A DNA stretch of 64,000 bases from Clavibacter michiganensis subsp. insidiosus (GTDB lineage: Bacteria; Actinomycetota; Actinomycetes; Actinomycetales; Microbacteriaceae): assembly GCF_002240565.1 (NCBI RefSeq), contig NZ_MZMO01000001.1, positions 1,922,001 to 1,986,000 on the forward strand, in the 5' to 3' direction. Under the pieces are notes generated by a model. The model did no database searches. It saw only the letters and a list, made by a program, of their open reading frames with translations, and was not told where the DNA came from. Positions within the stretch are counted from its first letter, which is position 1; every line of letters begins with the position of its first letter. Shown one piece after another: positions 16,285-21,183 of this stretch. The position numbers and the translations under genes are program-made.

Positions 16285-16755
16285 ATGGACCTCACCATCT
16301 CGCGGGTCGCGTGGGACGACGACGCCGCGACCTCCCTCCGCGCCGCCCAGCGCGCCGAGCTCGACCTCCGCTACGGCGGCGACACGGAGCCCGGCACGAA
16401 GCCCACGGCGGCCGACATGGCCGCGTTCCTCGTGGCGCGCGACGCGGACGGGACGCCCGTCGGCTGCGGCGGGATCCGGCCGCTCGGCGACCGCGGCGAC
16501 GGGACGCCGTGGGCGGAGCTCAAGCGCATGTACGTGGTGCCCGCCGTGCGCGGCACGGGCGTCGCGACGGCCGTGCTCCGCGCCCTCGAGGACACGGCGC
16601 GGGAGCTCGGCGTGGTCGACCTGGTGCTCGAGACCGGCCCCGAGCAGCCCGACGCGATGCGGTTCTACGTGCGCGAGGGCTGGACGGAGATCCCGCGCTT
16701 CGGCGCCTACGCCGACTCCGAGGGCTCGCGCTGCTACGCGCTGACGCTCGCGTGA
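16285..16755 (+). CDS. GNAT family N-acetyltransferase
   Basis: Has 156 residues from ATG 16285. The GNAT core is clear: PVGCGGIRPLGD (beta 2-3), LKRMYVVPAVRGTGVATAVLRALEDTA (beta 4 and acetyl-CoA loop RGTGVA) and DLVLETGPEQPDAMRFYVREGWTEIP (beta 5 onward). Substrate unknown. A CAGGAT hexamer ends 6 bases before the ATG, so the message may be leaderless. The stop codon overlaps the GTG of the UbiA-family gene (GTGA), so the two are translationally coupled. Confidence 0.82.
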   Translation: MDLTISRVAWDDDAATSLRAAQRAELDLRYGGDTEPGTKPTAADMAAFLVARDADGTPVGCGGIRPLGDRGDGTPWAELKRMYVVPAVRGTGVATAVLRALEDTARELGVVDLVLETGPEQPDAMRFYVREGWTEIPRFGAYADSEGSRCYALTLA

Positions 16756-17597
16756 TCCGCCGGCTCCGGCTCCTCGCCCTGTCCTCGCACCCGGGGCCGA
16801 CGGCGACCGTCACGGTGCTCGCCGCGGTGCTCGCGGTCGCGCTCGGCTTCGGACCGGGGCGCGTGGCCGCGGTGGCGCTGGCCGTGGTCCTCGGGCAGCT
16901 GTCCATCGGCCTCTCCAACGACTGGATCGACGCCGAGCGCGACCGCAGCGTCGCCCGCGCCGACAAGCCGGTCGCCCGCGGCGAGGTCTCGGTCGGCCTG
17001 GTCCGGGCGGCCGCCCTCGTGACGGCGGCGGCGTGCGGCGTGGCGTCGGCCGCGCTCGGGCCCGCCTTCCTCCTCGCGCACGGCGTGCTGGTGGGCGCGG
17101 GCTGGGCCTACAACGCCGGGCTCAAGCGCACCGCCGCGAGCGTCGTGCCGTTCGTCGTGGCCTTCGGGATCCTGCCGACGGTGGTCGCCCTCGGCGCCGC
17201 GGATCCCGTGCCCGCGGCCGCGTGGGCCATGGCGACCGGCGCGGTGCTCGGCGTCTCCATCCACTTCACCAACGTCCTGCCCGACCTCGAGGACGACGCC
17301 CGCACGGGCGTGCGCGGCCTGCCGCACCGGCTCGGGCGCGTGCCGTCGGGCCTCGTCGCGTTCGGGGCGCTGGCGCTGGGGGCGGTCGTCGTCGCCGTCG
17401 GTCCCGTGCTGCCGGATCCCGCGCACGCGGTCACCCCGCTCGCGGTCGCCGGGCTCGTCCTGACCCTCGGCATCGCCGCGTGGGGCGCCGTGCGCGTCGT
17501 CACCCGGCAGCCCGGGCGCCTGCTGTTCCAGCTGATCATGGCGGCGTCCCTGCTGCTCGTCGCCCAGCTCGCGCTCAACGCGACGCGCCTCACCTGA
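16752..17597 (+). CDS. UbiA-family membrane prenyltransferase
   Basis: Intramembrane aromatic prenyltransferase, 281 residues, with about nine hydrophobic helices. Both Asp-rich motifs that hold the Mg-diphosphate are present: NDWIDAERDRSVARADKP near residue 56 and NVLPDLEDDARTGVRG near residue 175. The convergent neighbour set (type III PKS, methyltransferase, flavin monooxygenase) matches the composition of the agq locus of Actinoplanes missouriensis, which makes alkyl-O-dihydrogeranyl-methoxyhydroquinones; prenylation of the polyketide phenol is therefore the likely job. It overlaps the monooxygenase gene end by 8 bases, convergently. Confidence 0.85.
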   Translation: MIRRLRLLALSSHPGPTATVTVLAAVLAVALGFGPGRVAAVALAVVLGQLSIGLSNDWIDAERDRSVARADKPVARGEVSVGLVRAAALVTAAACGVASAALGPAFLLAHGVLVGAGWAYNAGLKRTAASVVPFVVAFGILPTVVALGAADPVPAAAWAMATGAVLGVSIHFTNVLPDLEDDARTGVRGLPHRLGRVPSGLVAFGALALGAVVVAVGPVLPDPAHAVTPLAVAGLVLTLGIAAWGAVRVVTRQPGRLLFQLIMAASLLLVAQLALNATRLT

Positions 17598-18780
17598 CGC
17601 GCGCGCCCGCGTCCCGGCCCATGGCGTAGACGGAGGCGAGCCCGGCCGCGGCGGGCGAGGTGAGCACGGCGCGCAGTCCCGCGTCGCGCACGAGGCGGGT
17701 GAGCCCCCGGACGGGACGCCCGAGAGCCGTGTTGACCTCCGACTGGACGGCCGCGCGGCGCGCGCTGGCGAGCCGGTCGCGCTCCCAGCGGGCGAGGCGC
17801 GCGGGATCGGGCACGCCGCGGCGCGCGCGGACGGCGTCGACGAGGATCGGCGCGAGGGCGTCCGCGTCGAGCCAGCCGAGGTTCATCCCCTGCCCGCCGA
17901 TGGAGCTGATCTCGTGGGCCGCGTCGCCGATGAGGAGGCCGCGTCCGGCGACCATGCGGCGGGCGAGGCGGCGGCGCACGCCGAAGCCGCTGACCGGATC
18001 CAGCTCCGCCGCCGATACGACGTGCCCGGTGCGCGCCGCCACCGCGCGGGCGATGAGGGCGGCCGGATCCCCGTCGCGCTCCCCCGCGCGGACGCCCACG
18101 ACGAACCGCCGCCGGCCGCCCGGAAGCGGGAAGGACTCGACCACGCCGTCCGGGTGCAGCGTGACGACGGCGTCGTCGCCGCCGCCGGTGCGGTCGGGCG
18201 CGTCGCCCATGAGGAAGCGGTCGGGCAGCGGGCGCTCGTCGACGGCGATCCCGAGGAACCCGCGGACGACGCCGCGCGTGCCGTCCGCCCCGATCACCAG
18301 GGGGGCGGTGACCTCCACGGCGGCGCCGTCGGCGTCCCGCCCGGTCGCGCGGACGACGCCGCCGGGCAGGTCGGCGGGATCCGCGTCGAGCCCGGTGAGC
18401 GTCACGCCGCGGGTGAGGGCCTCGGGCGCGAGGGCGGCCAGGCGCCTCGCGAGGATCGCCTCCGTGCGCCACTGCGGCAGCGCCGCGACGTAGGGGTGCG
18501 TGGTCGAGACCCCCGCGAACGAGACGCGACCGAGCTCCCCGCGCGGCCCCATCGCGATGCCCGTGCGGACCAGGATCGCCTCCGCGACCATCTCGCCCGC
18601 GACGCCGAGCCGGTCGAACGCGTCGAGCGAGGGCGCGTGGATCCCGATGGCGCGCGACAGCAGCGCGGGCGTCGTCCGTGCCTCCCACACGCGCACGTCG
18701 AGGCCGGCCTGCGCGAGGAGCGCGGCGAGGTGGATCCCCACGGGCCCGCCGCCCACGACGAGCGCGTCGACGCGGGTCAT
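17590..18780 (-). CDS. FAD-dependent monooxygenase (PHBH-like)
   Basis: Flavoprotein hydroxylase with 396 residues from ATG 18780. Seen: the Rossmann FAD motif VDALVVGGGPVGIHLAALLAQAG at the N-terminus, LVIGADGTRGVVRGFLG (DG motif) near residue 150, and RGLLIGDAAHEISSIGGQGMNLGWLDADAL (GD motif) near residue 275. Last gene of the minus-strand run PKS-methyltransferase-monooxygenase; its start overlaps the methyltransferase stop (ATGA). In the comparable agq pathway a flavoprotein hydroxylates the alkylresorcinol to a hydroquinone, and I infer the same role here. Confidence 0.85.
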   Translation of the reverse strand: MTRVDALVVGGGPVGIHLAALLAQAGLDVRVWEARTTPALLSRAIGIHAPSLDAFDRLGVAGEMVAEAILVRTGIAMGPRGELGRVSFAGVSTTHPYVAALPQWRTEAILARRLAALAPEALTRGVTLTGLDADPADLPGGVVRATGRDADGAAVEVTAPLVIGADGTRGVVRGFLGIAVDERPLPDRFLMGDAPDRTGGGDDAVVTLHPDGVVESFPLPGGRRRFVVGVRAGERDGDPAALIARAVAARTGHVVSAAELDPVSGFGVRRRLARRMVAGRGLLIGDAAHEISSIGGQGMNLGWLDADALAPILVDAVRARRGVPDPARLARWERDRLASARRAAVQSEVNTALGRPVRGLTRLVRDAGLRAVLTSPAAAGLASVYAMGRDAGARVR

Positions 18781-19499
18781 CGGCCCGTGCGGTCGGCGGG
18801 GCCGGCGCCGCCCGCGGCCGGGTCGCGCACGACGAGCACGCGGAACGGCACGGCGCCCTCGACGCGCCAGCCCGCCGGCACCCGGAGGGCGAGCTCCACG
18901 GGCGTCCAGCTGCGGCGGATCGACCGGAGCCCGTCGACGTGCACGAAGGATCCGCGCGCGACGAGCCGGGAGGCCGGGCCGTAGAGGGCGTAGGCGAGGC
19001 GGCCGCGCGCGATGTCGCTGTGGATGGCCCGCGGGGCGAGCGCGGCCGAGTCGGCGAGGAGGGCGTCGAAGGCGGCGGCGTCGAGGTGGTGCAGCACGTG
19101 GTTGCTCGTCACGAGGTCGAACCGGCGGCCATCGGCCGCGAGCTCGGCGCTCGACGCGGCGAGGAACTCGACGTCGGGGTCCCGCGGCCGGCCGCGCGCG
19201 AAGGCGGCGGCCCGCGGATCCGGGTCGATGCCGGTGACGCGCAGCCGCAGCCCGTCGCGGCGCGCCCACCGCGCGAGGGAGAGCGGCACGTCGCCGCCGC
19301 CCGAGCCGATGTCGAGGAGCGTCGTCTCCCGATCGGCGGACAGCAACGGGCGGATGCGGGACCGGAAGACCCCGCGCCAGCCGGCGACCGCCCGGTTGAC
19401 GATCCCGAACCGCGCGTAGGTGCGGTCGAGCGCCACGGGGTCGCAGTCCGGGTCGTCCATGAGCTCGGTGAGCTCCGTGTCGCGCCGGGACAGGTCCAT
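18777..19499 (-). CDS. SAM-dependent methyltransferase in type III PKS operon
   Basis: Class I methyltransferase with 240 residues from ATG 19499. Seen: the SAM-binding motif I TTLLDIGSGGGDVPLSLARWA, the acidic ribose-binding turn RVTGIDPDPRAAAFA and FDLVTSNHVLHHLDAAAFDALL (motif post II). The ATG shares a base with the PKS stop (TGATG) and its own stop overlaps the monooxygenase start, so this is one coupled operon. It likely O-methylates a phenolic product of the PKS. The ORF could be read 22 codons upstream, but that would overlap the PKS deeply and lacks family similarity. Confidence 0.83.
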   Translation of the reverse strand: MDLSRRDTELTELMDDPDCDPVALDRTYARFGIVNRAVAGWRGVFRSRIRPLLSADRETTLLDIGSGGGDVPLSLARWARRDGLRLRVTGIDPDPRAAAFARGRPRDPDVEFLAASSAELAADGRRFDLVTSNHVLHHLDAAAFDALLADSAALAPRAIHSDIARGRLAYALYGPASRLVARGSFVHVDGLRSIRRSWTPVELALRVPAGWRVEGAVPFRVLVVRDPAAGGAGPADRTGR

Positions 19500-20716
19500 C
19501 AGGTGGTCCGGCGGGTCATGAGCGCCGTCTCCACCGTGAGGCCGGGACCGAACGCCATGGCGCACACGCGTCCCGCTCCGGGCCCGGACGCCGGGATCGG
19601 CGCGGGCTCCGCGACGTCGGGGCGGCCGGGCACGTCAGCCCGCGGCGTCCCGTGCAGGATCCGCCGGAGCACGAACAGCACCGTCGCGCTCGACATGTTG
19701 CCCACCTCCGCGAGCGTCGACCGCGAGGCCTCCAGCTGCGCGGGCGCGAGCGCCAGCCGGTCCTCGACCCGGTCGAGGATGCTGCGTCCGCCGGGGTGGA
19801 TCGCCCAGCCCGCGATCTCCGCCGGCGCGACGCCCTGGAGCGCGGGCACCTGCGCCCAGAGCGGTGCCAGCGCGCCCGTGATGTGCTCGTCGATGATCTT
19901 CGGCACGTAGCTCGACAGGATCATGTCGAAGCCCTGGTCCCCGATGGTCCACGCCATGTCGTCCTCGCCCACGGGAGTGAGCACGGTCTCGAACGCCTCG
20001 AGGTCGAGCACGGTGGATCCGGCGGGCGCGGGCCGCGCGGTGACGACGGCGGCCGCCGCCCCGTCGCCGAAGACCGACGAGGCGACGATCGTGTCCGCGT
20101 CGTTCGACGAGTGCAGGTGCAGCGAGCAGAGCTCCACGCACACGACGAGGACGACGGCGTCGGGGTCGGCGGCGCAGAACTGCGCGGCCATGCGGAGCGC
20201 CGGGAAGGCGCCGTAGCAGCCCATGAAGCCGAGGTGGAAGCGCTGGGTGGAGGCGCTGAGGCCGAGGCCGCGGACGACCTGGTAGTCGGGGCCGGGCGCG
20301 TAGAAGCCCGTGCAGGAGACCGTGACGACGTGCGTGACGTCGGCCGCCTCGATCCCGGCTGCCTCGTCGACCGCCTGGCGCGCCGCCCCGAGCAGCAGGG
20401 CGGGGGCCTCGCGGATGTACGTGTCGTTGCGCGCGCCGGTGCCGGGGGTGAGGATCCGCCCGCTGGCCCGGTCGTAGAAGACGGGCTCGCCGTCGACCTC
20501 GGCGGGTGCGTCGGCTCCCGCCATGCCCGGCGCGGTGCCGAGCTCGCCGATCACCGTGTGGCGCGTGCGGATCCCCGACGCGTTGAAGGCCGCCGACACG
20601 AGCCGGGTGCCGAGCCGCCCGAGCTCGGGCTGGCTGCCGAAGAGGTCGCGCACGCCGTCCTGCGCGAGGACCGTCGGCGGCAGGGCCGTGGCGATCGACC
20701 GGATGGAGGCGATCAG
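19499..20716 (-). CDS. Type III polyketide synthase, apparent CTG start
   Basis: Chalcone/stilbene-synthase-like homodimeric ketosynthase that extends an acyl-CoA with malonyl-CoA. It has 405 residues if translation starts at CTG 20716. The catalytic triad is intact: Cys135 (VTVSCTGFYAPGPDY), His307 (GWAIHPGG) and Asn340 (EVGNMSSATVLF). The first ATG/GTG/TTG in frame is GTG 20653, but the 21 codons before it encode LIASIRSIATALPPTVLAQDG, the conserved N-terminal strand of the family, so translation must begin earlier. CTG 20716 overlaps the upstream stop as CTGA, mirroring the ATGA/GTGA couplings elsewhere in the window. Confidence 0.88.
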   Translation of the reverse strand: MIASIRSIATALPPTVLAQDGVRDLFGSQPELGRLGTRLVSAAFNASGIRTRHTVIGELGTAPGMAGADAPAEVDGEPVFYDRASGRILTPGTGARNDTYIREAPALLLGAARQAVDEAAGIEAADVTHVVTVSCTGFYAPGPDYQVVRGLGLSASTQRFHLGFMGCYGAFPALRMAAQFCAADPDAVVLVVCVELCSLHLHSSNDADTIVASSVFGDGAAAAVVTARPAPAGSTVLDLEAFETVLTPVGEDDMAWTIGDQGFDMILSSYVPKIIDEHITGALAPLWAQVPALQGVAPAEIAGWAIHPGGRSILDRVEDRLALAPAQLEASRSTLAEVGNMSSATVLFVLRRILHGTPRADVPGRPDVAEPAPIPASGPGAGRVCAMAFGPGLTVETALMTRRTT

Positions 20717-21183
20717 CGTCGGCCGCCGGAGACGACGGCGGCGCCGACCGCGAGCACGACGGCGACGGCACCCGCGCCGATCGACGCGGCGACGGCCGGG
20801 TCCTTCTTCGTGAACGCACGCGTGCGGCGCGCGACGTCCCGGCCGGTCGTGCGGACGCGGGAGGTGACGTCGTCGCGGATGGCGCGGGCGTCGGCCTTCA
20901 GCTCGGAGGCCCGGGCGCGGGCGTCGGCCTTCAGCTCGGAGGCGCGGGCCGGCACGTCGAGCGCCGTCTCGAGATCCCGGACGGTGCGCGCGAGCTCGTC
21001 ACGGCCGGCCTGGATGTCGCGCTTCAGCTCCTCGGGGCTGCGCTTGGGGGCGGGCGGGATGTTCGCGCCCTCGCCGTGCGGCGCCGACTCGGCGACCGCC
21101 TTGTGCTTGCGGACCTCGCGGGCGACCGTGGTCACGGCGCCGATGACGCTCACCTCGCCGGTCGGGGACTTCTTCTTGGCCAT
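20713..21183 (-). CDS. DUF3618-type membrane protein with internal 11-residue repeat
   Basis: Has 156 residues from ATG 21183. Seen: a Lys-rich N-terminus (MAKKKSPTGE), the DUF3618-like stretch RSPEELKRDIQAGRDELARTVRDLETALDVP, two copies of an 11-residue ASELKADARAR unit, a basic region, and one C-terminal membrane helix (VAASIGAGAVAVVLAVGAAVV). The family is of unknown function; the helix and amphipathic repeats suggest a membrane-bound, perhaps apolipoprotein-like, structure. First gene of the minus-strand PKS operon: its stop overlaps the PKS start, so a link to handling or localising the lipid product is possible but not shown. Confidence 0.75.
   Translation of the reverse strand: MAKKKSPTGEVSVIGAVTTVAREVRKHKAVAESAPHGEGANIPPAPKRSPEELKRDIQAGRDELARTVRDLETALDVPARASELKADARARASELKADARAIRDDVTSRVRTTGRDVARRTRAFTKKDPAVAASIGAGAVAVVLAVGAAVVSGGRR
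20882..20947. repeat. 33-bp direct repeat, two tandem copies
   Basis: Copies at 20882-20914 and 20915-20947 differ at one base. Each is 11 codons and gives the repeated ASELKADARAR unit of the DUF3618 protein. Copy number could vary between strains by slippage. Confidence 0.8.

What the first reader, a model, noticed from the sequence alone, without database searches (positions are those of the whole stretch)
16752..21183. Type III PKS / methyltransferase / flavin monooxygenase / UbiA locus for a prenylated phenolic lipid
A tightly coupled minus-strand operon (DUF3618 protein, type III PKS with intact Cys-His-Asn triad, SAM methyltransferase, FAD monooxygenase) faces a UbiA prenyltransferase with both Asp motifs. 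This is the enzyme set of the Actinoplanes agq locus for alkyl-O-dihydrogeranyl-methoxyhydroquinones. The product here could be a membrane phenolic or hydroquinone. The DUF3618 gene as operon leader is unusual and may be a lipid-handling partner.
Basis: partly seen in the sequence, partly recalled or inferred. Interest (0 to 1): 0.75.

Follow-up and report, generated by a model that had tools for sequence, protein, structure and literature searches.

The report
Hybrid cluster for prenylated phenolic lipid

Summary
The genes are as described: UbiA(+) faces a minus-strand chain DUF3618–type III PKS–methyltransferase–FAD monooxygenase, with catalytic residues intact. The PKS is in 18 of 18 genomes of the genus (Clavibacter), the whole block in 10 of 10 fetched with flanks. 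It is not an agq locus. Against the agq-type locus of the genome whose length equals that of Actinoplanes missouriensis, the PKS is 34% identical and UbiA 51% over 175 aa, but the methyltransferase gives no blast hit and the flavoenzyme belongs to another family (acyl-CoA dehydrogenase). The PKS–MT–FAD trio instead matches other Microbacteriaceae and Deinococcus megaplasmid operons (43–56%). So the locus is a hybrid of that trio and an AgqD-like UbiA. UbiA linkage: 24 of 32 Microbacteriaceae genomes with both genes have them within 6 kb; 60 of 79 checkable Actinomycetes genomes have this UbiA within 6 kb of some type III PKS (of 17 such loci read, 12 srs-type, 5 agq-type). DUF3618 precedes the PKS in 18 of 18 genus genomes and in 0 of 30 other genera by tblastn; the PKS start overlaps its stop at a non-standard codon. 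Most likely product: a prenylated methoxy-alkyl-hydroquinone/quinone lipid. Chemistry is inferred, not shown.

The parts
16752..17597 (+). UbiA-family membrane prenyltransferase, AgqD-like subfamily
   Evidence: PF01040 5e-26; motifs NDWIDAERD and DLEDD; 51% over 175 aa to the UbiA of the agq-type locus; within 6 kb of a type III PKS in 60 of 79 Actinomycetes genomes that could be checked
17590..18780 (-). FAD-dependent aromatic monooxygenase (hydroxylase), p-hydroxybenzoate-hydroxylase type
   Evidence: PF01494 7e-44; nearest solved structures by sequence are oxygenases, rifampin monooxygenase and UbiH-like hydroxylases; 43-47% to the FAD gene of two Deinococcus operons
18777..19499 (-). class I SAM methyltransferase, NCBIfam NF004851 (PRK06202)
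   Evidence: NF004851 335 bits, cut-off 243; follows the PKS in 30 of 30 other genera
19499..20716 (-). type III polyketide synthase, probable alkylresorcinol synthase; start codon probably CTG
   Evidence: PF00195/PF02797; Cys136-His308-Asn341 counted from 20719; in 18 of 18 genus genomes
20713..20719 (-). overlap of DUF3618 stop (TGA) with ACG-CTG at the PKS start, invariant in the genus
   Evidence: 18 of 18 genomes: ACG CTG invariant, no conserved ATG/GTG/TTG near it
20713..21183 (-). DUF3618 small protein with one C-terminal hydrophobic segment; genus-level operon leader, probably translational coupling rather than a pathway enzyme
   Evidence: PF12277 2e-10; 18 of 18 genus genomes, 0 of 30 other genera by tblastn; one hydrophobic segment
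16285..16755 (+). GNAT acetyltransferase overlapping the UbiA start; upstream neighbour in most of the genus, not judged part of the pathway
   Evidence: PF00583 1e-15; beside UbiA in 9 of 10 fetched genus loci

Best explanation
The four enzymes form one pathway for a membrane phenolic lipid. Inferred order: (1) the type III PKS extends a long fatty acyl starter with malonyl-CoA and closes it to an alkylresorcinol; (2) the class I methyltransferase methylates the ring or a ring hydroxyl; (3) the FAD monooxygenase hydroxylates the ring to a methoxy-hydroquinone, which can oxidise to the quinone; (4) UbiA, in the membrane, adds an isoprenyl group. Shown here: gene families, intact catalytic residues, conserved linkage of PKS with MT, of FAD with UbiA, and of this UbiA subfamily with type III PKS genes across Actinomycetes. 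Inferred: starter length, resorcinol rather than pyrone, position of methyl, hydroxyl and prenyl groups, and biological role. The locus is a hybrid: the PKS-MT-FAD trio is of the type found in other Microbacteriaceae and Deinococcus, while UbiA is shared with agq-type and srs-type loci. DUF3618 is a genus-level leader whose stop codon overlaps the PKS start and probably drives its translation.
For: PKS-MT adjacency in 30 of 30 other genera, FAD next in 23 of 30, UbiA beside them in 9 of 30. 24 of 32 Microbacteriaceae genomes holding both this PKS type and UbiA have them within 6 kb. Of the 8 where they are apart, 5 were fetched; in 4 UbiA is convergent with a 43-53% identical relative of the FAD gene (L129, L130, L131, L138; not L128), a split locus that ties FAD and UbiA together. 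UbiA is in 68 of 72 genomes with only the other (srs-type) PKS against 6 of 56 with neither; one genome per genus 34 of 34 against 2 of 22. In three genomes UbiA follows directly in a PKS-ICMT-FAD-UbiA run. Class-wide: 60 of 79 genomes with both places listed have UbiA within 6 kb of a type III PKS, in 17 family codes; presence association odds ratio 10. The FAD enzyme resembles aromatic hydroxylases. Planctomycete PKSs of a like operon made alkylresorcinols in C. glutamicum, and an MT-FAD pair added one methyl group (PMC10896814, passages). Four srs-type loci with UbiA carry a gene of one family near it, whose L231 member is an isopentenyl-diphosphate isomerase.
Against: No product has been seen. 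Within the window's PKS type, UbiA presence is not associated with the PKS: 32 of 71 genomes with it against 74 of 128 without (odds ratio 0.6, p 0.10), so prenylation is at most optional for this PKS type. UbiA here is on the opposite strand, so co-regulation is not shown; the simple scan found no promoter and one terminator-like site against 0.6 expected from shuffles. In the class sample 19 of 116 UbiA genomes (E 1e-33) or 47 of 152 (E 1e-20) have no Pfam-detected type III PKS. In planctomycetes the methyl group was judged to sit on carbon, and the role of the FAD enzyme stayed unclear (PMC10896814). Counts are not corrected for phylogeny beyond one genome per genus, and one search scored at most 9 candidates a genome.
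Confidence: 0.7

Rival explanations
1. The locus is a true agq orthologue and makes alkyl-O-dihydrogeranyl-methoxyhydroquinones.
For: Same four roles in one place; UbiA 51% identical over 175 aa and PKS 34%.
Against: Methyltransferase has no blast similarity to the agq one; agq flavoenzyme is of the acyl-CoA dehydrogenase family. The AgqA-like PKSs are a separate clade with 100/100 support.
Confidence: 0.05
2. PKS, MT and FAD make an unprenylated methoxy-alkylquinone, and UbiA is a neighbour that serves another pathway.
For: 39 of 71 genomes with this PKS type have no UbiA orthologue at E 1e-12; UbiA is on the opposite strand and overlaps an acetyltransferase gene; three Deinococcus loci have the trio without UbiA, and a plasmid search with UbiA found no Deinococcus record.
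Against: 24 of 32 linkage in the family, FAD-UbiA pairing kept in 4 of 5 fetched split loci, and 60 of 79 linkage of the UbiA subfamily with type III PKS across the class.
Confidence: 0.17
3. The PKS makes an alkylpyrone or other non-resorcinol product, so that the later enzymes act on a different ring.
For: Type III PKSs change ring closure easily (general knowledge); no row known to me as characterised lies inside the window's PKS clade.
Against: A flavin hydroxylase of the aromatic type and a UbiA prenyltransferase fit a phenol better; related operon PKSs made alkylresorcinols (PMC10896814).
Confidence: 0.15
4. DUF3618 is a functional partner, for example a membrane anchor for the PKS, or is fused to it by frameshifting.
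For: 18 of 18 conservation beside the PKS, one C-terminal hydrophobic segment, and no standard PKS start codon; one other genus has a Pfam-level match 1.7 kb upstream of its PKS.
Against: Not found by tblastn in the PKS loci of 30 of 30 other genera; PF12277 is found in 166 of 199 Microbacteriaceae genomes. No slippery sequence was evident by eye.
Confidence: 0.15

Closest known systems
PKS-MT-FAD operons of other Microbacteriaceae and of Deinococcus megaplasmids (no characterisation seen in the 15 of 118 titles listed)
   Same: Gene order and overlap; PKS 54-56%, MT 49-53%, FAD 43-47% to two Deinococcus operons; one clade for the PKS (100/98).
   Different: The three Deinococcus loci viewed have no UbiA and no DUF3618 annotated nearby.
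agq cluster of Actinoplanes missouriensis and the related los cluster
   Same: Same four roles; UbiA of one subfamily (51% over 175 aa).
   Different: Other MT family and a flavoenzyme of another family; PKS in another clade.
srs / pkq operons (Streptomyces, Mycobacterium, Microbacteriaceae)
   Same: PKS plus methyltransferase plus flavoenzyme; UbiA of the same subfamily often next door.
   Different: Methyltransferase is the membrane ICMT type; the flavoenzyme's best NCBIfam hit is the geranylgeranyl reductase family, below its cut-off; PKS 31%. No S. griseus or Mycobacterium sequence was compared directly; the srs label rests on PMC6669644 (passages).
hierridin (hidABC) and planctomycete MT-FAD-PKS operons
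   Same: PKS, class I MT and FAD oxidoreductase; the order PKS-MT-FAD also occurs in cyanobacteria (PMC8086630, passages). Paludisphaera PKS 39%, MT 32% (E 1e-13).
   Different: FAD match weak (E 0.002); a prenyltransferase was reported in one cyanobacterial cluster only (PMC8086630). No cyanobacterial sequence was compared.

Membership tests
agq cluster (alkyl-O-dihydrogeranyl-methoxyhydroquinone) | PKS orthologous to AgqA | tested here: not met
   34% identity; AgqA-like PKSs form their own clade 100/100
agq cluster (alkyl-O-dihydrogeranyl-methoxyhydroquinone) | methyltransferase homologous to the agq one | tested here: not met
   no blastp hit up to E 10; both are class I, so a distant relation is not excluded
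agq cluster (alkyl-O-dihydrogeranyl-methoxyhydroquinone) | flavoenzyme homologous to the agq one | tested here: not met
   agq-type protein is acyl-CoA dehydrogenase family (Pfam on a Frankia relative; best match of the agq protein in that family 61%), window protein PF01494
agq cluster (alkyl-O-dihydrogeranyl-methoxyhydroquinone) | UbiA prenyltransferase of the AgqD subfamily | tested here: met
   51% over 175 aa, E 1e-35
agq cluster (alkyl-O-dihydrogeranyl-methoxyhydroquinone) | dihydrogeranyl-methoxyhydroquinone product | not testable with these tools
   needs lipid analysis
srs / pkq operon | ICMT-type methyltransferase beside the PKS | tested here: not met
   window MT is PF13649/NF004851; srsB described as ICMT in PMC6669644
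hierridin-like / planctomycete operon | type III PKS, class I MT and FAD oxidoreductase in one operon | tested here: met
   (planctomycete locus used as the stand-in)
hierridin-like / planctomycete operon | PKS inside the hid/planctomycete clade | tested here: inconclusive
   one planctomycete row only, 39% identity, separate long branch; no cyanobacterial row was in the tree
type III PKS | Cys-His-Asn triad and chalcone-synthase-type domains | tested here: met
UbiA prenyltransferase superfamily | membrane protein with two Asp-rich motifs | tested here: met
aromatic flavin monooxygenase (PHBH type) | GxGxxG, DG and GD motifs | tested here: met

The most novel reading that the evidence does not exclude
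One UbiA subfamily (to which AgqD belongs) is a general, swappable fourth component of actinobacterial type III PKS lipid-quinone pathways. It is attached to at least three tailoring sets with different methyltransferase and flavoenzyme families (srs-type, agq-type, and the window's type). If so, the polyketide quinones of srs/pkq operons, described as products of three genes, are often prenylated meroterpenoid lipids in their native hosts.
Probability: 0.5. Interest if true: 0.72.

Novelty: new variant of a known kind. Interest (0 to 1): 0.5.

Why it matters
It corrects the label 'agq' for this locus: two of four enzymes come from other families. It also names a likely missing partner. The UbiA linkage found here predicts a prenylation step in many srs/pkq-type pathways, which the polyketide-quinone paper whose passages I read describes as a three-gene machinery (PMC9927152; 0 words beginning with 'UbiA' or 'prenyl'). 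Whether such respiratory or envelope quinones are prenylated becomes directly testable by deleting one adjacent gene. For Clavibacter, a PKS locus present in 18 of 18 genomes, for which the listings showed me no reported product, is a candidate source of an envelope lipid.

Tried and rejected
agq orthology: rejected on MT and flavoenzyme. DUF3618 as co-occurring partner: not supported outside the genus, with one Pfam-level match 1.7 kb upstream of the PKS in G108 not followed. Treating the 145 of 199 family hits as one PKS type: rejected, since 71 are relatives at 51-100% and 73 are a second PKS type at 30-38%, one genome having both by the listed matches; weak hits (G003, G146) were left out of both classes. 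Assuming that f25/g159 genomes were Actinoplanes: wrong, they were Frankia; Actinoplanes was then reached through the Micromonosporaceae group. UbiA-PKS presence association within the window's PKS type: tested, absent. Promoter/terminator scan: nothing useful. Solved-structure search by sequence for UbiA and MT: no hit. I folded no protein and did not use the large protein database. The residue reported to mark resorcinol synthases (Trp281, PMC9927152) was not tested, for lack of a named reference sequence. L239 gave no UbiA open frame and was dropped from that count; L064 and L121-L123 gave no gene calls and were read by tblastn. Gene calls come from my own codon-based caller, not from an annotation. 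The nesting of Deinococcus inside the Microbacteriaceae PKS group rests on branches that are not starred (86/94 and 80/71).
Full report
What is there. The window lies in a genome of the genus Clavibacter (20 kb of its second contig match 55 plasmid records, 47 of them Clavibacter). In the interval between a glycine-betaine-type ABC transporter and cydAB lies UbiA (16752-17597, +) facing a minus-strand chain DUF3618 (21183-20713), type III PKS (20716-19499), methyltransferase (19499-18777) and FAD monooxygenase (18780-17590). The genus holds the PKS in 18 of 18 genomes. The block, with the same outer flanks, was seen in 10 of 10 genus loci fetched with flanks.

The PKS start. In all 18 genus genomes the codons ACG CTG are invariant at the point where my gene caller starts a relative (L050), and CTG overlaps the DUF3618 stop as CTGA. 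No ATG, GTG or TTG is conserved nearby: GTG at codon 23 is in 13 of 18 and GTG at codon 13 in 9 of 18. Codons 6-11 encode the same residues in 18 of 18, with synonymous differences at all six, so the region is very likely translated. A CTG start coupled to DUF3618 termination is the simplest reading; ACG is possible too. This would give DUF3618 a plain reason to lead the operon. It does not look like a conserved pathway partner: the window's DUF3618 is found by tblastn in 0 of 30 PKS loci of other genera, while PF12277 occurs in 166 of 199 family genomes. One of the 30 (G108, L054) has a PF12277 match about 1.7 kb upstream of its PKS on the same strand; the list was cut, so others may be missed.

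Relatives of the trio. In the 30 other genera with this PKS type, one locus each, the MT follows the PKS in 30, the FAD gene follows in 23, and UbiA is within reach in 9, convergent in 8 and divergent upstream in 1. In three loci without the FAD gene (L067, L074, L078) a small protein and a nitroreductase-family protein take its place. Outside the phylum, three Deinococcus megaplasmids carry PKS-MT-FAD in the same order, with PKS 54-56%, MT 49-53% and FAD 43-47% identity for the two compared. In the tree of 33 PKS rows, the Microbacteriaceae rows plus Deinococcus form one group with 100/98 support; Deinococcus falls inside it, but on branches that are not starred.

Comparison with agq. A. missouriensis is held unnamed; I identified genome G739 by its single contig of 8,773,466 bp, the published size. 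Its locus (L221) reads UbiA(-), methyltransferase, acyl-CoA-dehydrogenase-like protein, PKS, the same set as the published los table (UbiA, methyltransferase, acyl-CoA dehydrogenase, PKS; PMC7587189, passages). I take this as agq; the original agq paper was not available to me, so gene letters are recalled. Against it, window PKS is 34%, UbiA 51% over 175 aa, MT and FAD without blast similarity. The claim of a shared enzyme set is therefore right in roles, wrong in families for two of four.

Does UbiA belong? Of 199 Microbacteriaceae genomes, 71 have the window's PKS type, 73 have a second type III PKS (call it B), and one has both by the listed matches (at most 9 candidates a genome were scored). 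UbiA orthologues (E 1e-12) are in 106. Within the window's type UbiA is not enriched (32 of 71 against 74 of 128, p 0.10), which speaks against an obligate link; but where both occur, 24 of 32 are within 6 kb. Of the eight others, five were fetched: in four UbiA is convergent with a 43-53% identical FAD relative away from the PKS, in one it is not. UbiA tracks type B closely: 68 of 72 B-only genomes against 6 of 56 with neither PKS; one genome per genus (84 of 85 genera) 34 of 34 against 2 of 22, and 33 of 33 against 1 of 10 when genomes under 2 Mb are left out, sizes taken by hand. In G030, G095 and G104, UbiA follows directly in a PKS-ICMT-FAD-UbiA run.

Class-wide. In 282 Actinomycetes genomes, 153 have a Pfam type III PKS and 116 have this UbiA at E 1e-33 or better; 97 have both, 19 UbiA only, 56 PKS only, 110 neither (odds ratio 10; at E 1e-20, 105, 47, 48 and 82, odds ratio 3.8). 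Match lists were cut, so only 79 genomes had both places listed; in 60 of them UbiA is within 6 kb of a type III PKS, in 17 family codes. I fetched 18 of these 60; of 17 that could be read, 12 have PKS-ICMT-FAD and 5 an agq-type PKS. Type B corresponds to the srs operon by gene content: in Marisediminicola, also Microbacteriaceae, PKS, ICMT and monooxygenase were called srsA-C at 51-63% identity to S. griseus (PMC6669644, passages). Four of the 12 carry a gene of one family nearby (L231, L235, L237, L244), whose L231 member passes NCBIfam's isopentenyl-diphosphate isomerase cut-off. L230, L231, L235, L244 and L245 carry a further protein of the FAD family near UbiA or the PKS. So the UbiA subfamily appears to be a swappable partner of several type III PKS pathways.

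Mechanism. The order PKS, methylation, ring hydroxylation, prenylation is inferred from families and from related systems: planctomycete PKSs of a like operon produced alkylresorcinols in C. glutamicum, with one methyl, judged to be on carbon, added when the MT-FAD pair was present, and the FAD role left open (PMC10896814, passages). The FAD enzyme's nearest solved relatives by sequence are mostly oxygenases and hydroxylases. The biological role is open; electron carrier and antibiotic-tolerance lipid are reported for relatives (PMC9927152 and PMC10896814, passages).

Novelty. T3PKS genes in Clavibacter and relatives have been counted by genome papers (PMC5217419, passages, lists one T3pks for C. 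michiganensis NCPPB 382). I saw no characterised product for Clavibacter in the listings (14 of 14 papers; 15 of 15; 15 of 380), which cover open-licence papers only. A prenyltransferase in a hierridin-type cluster was noted once in cyanobacteria (PMC8086630, passages). I rate the locus a new variant of a known kind: a known set of roles assembled from differently derived parts.

Noticed in passing
window 20713-20719 and 18 Clavibacter loci (L006-L009, L036-L049): The PKS has no standard start codon conserved in 18 genus genomes; ACG CTG is invariant and CTG overlaps the DUF3618 stop.
   Followed up: partly
199 Microbacteriaceae genomes: Two type III PKS types nearly exclude each other: 71 and 73 genomes, 1 with both by the listed matches, as if one pathway replaces the other.
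   Followed up: partly
L113, L114, L116: Deinococcus megaplasmid PKS-MT-FAD operons; their PKSs group with the Microbacteriaceae type (100/98) and may nest inside it, suggesting transfer between phyla.
   Followed up: partly
L229-L238, L244, L245: srs-type operons across Actinomycetes have this UbiA next door, some with a gene of the isopentenyl-diphosphate isomerase family and a second gene of the FAD family.
   Followed up: partly
L067, L074, L078: The FAD monooxygenase gene is replaced by a small protein and a nitroreductase-family protein.
   Followed up: no
L129, L130, L131, L138: Split loci: UbiA convergent with a relative of the FAD gene away from the PKS-MT pair.
   Followed up: yes
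L054 (G108), about 1.7 kb upstream of the PKS: A Pfam-level DUF3618 match lies on the PKS strand in another genus, not found by tblastn with the window's protein.
   Followed up: no
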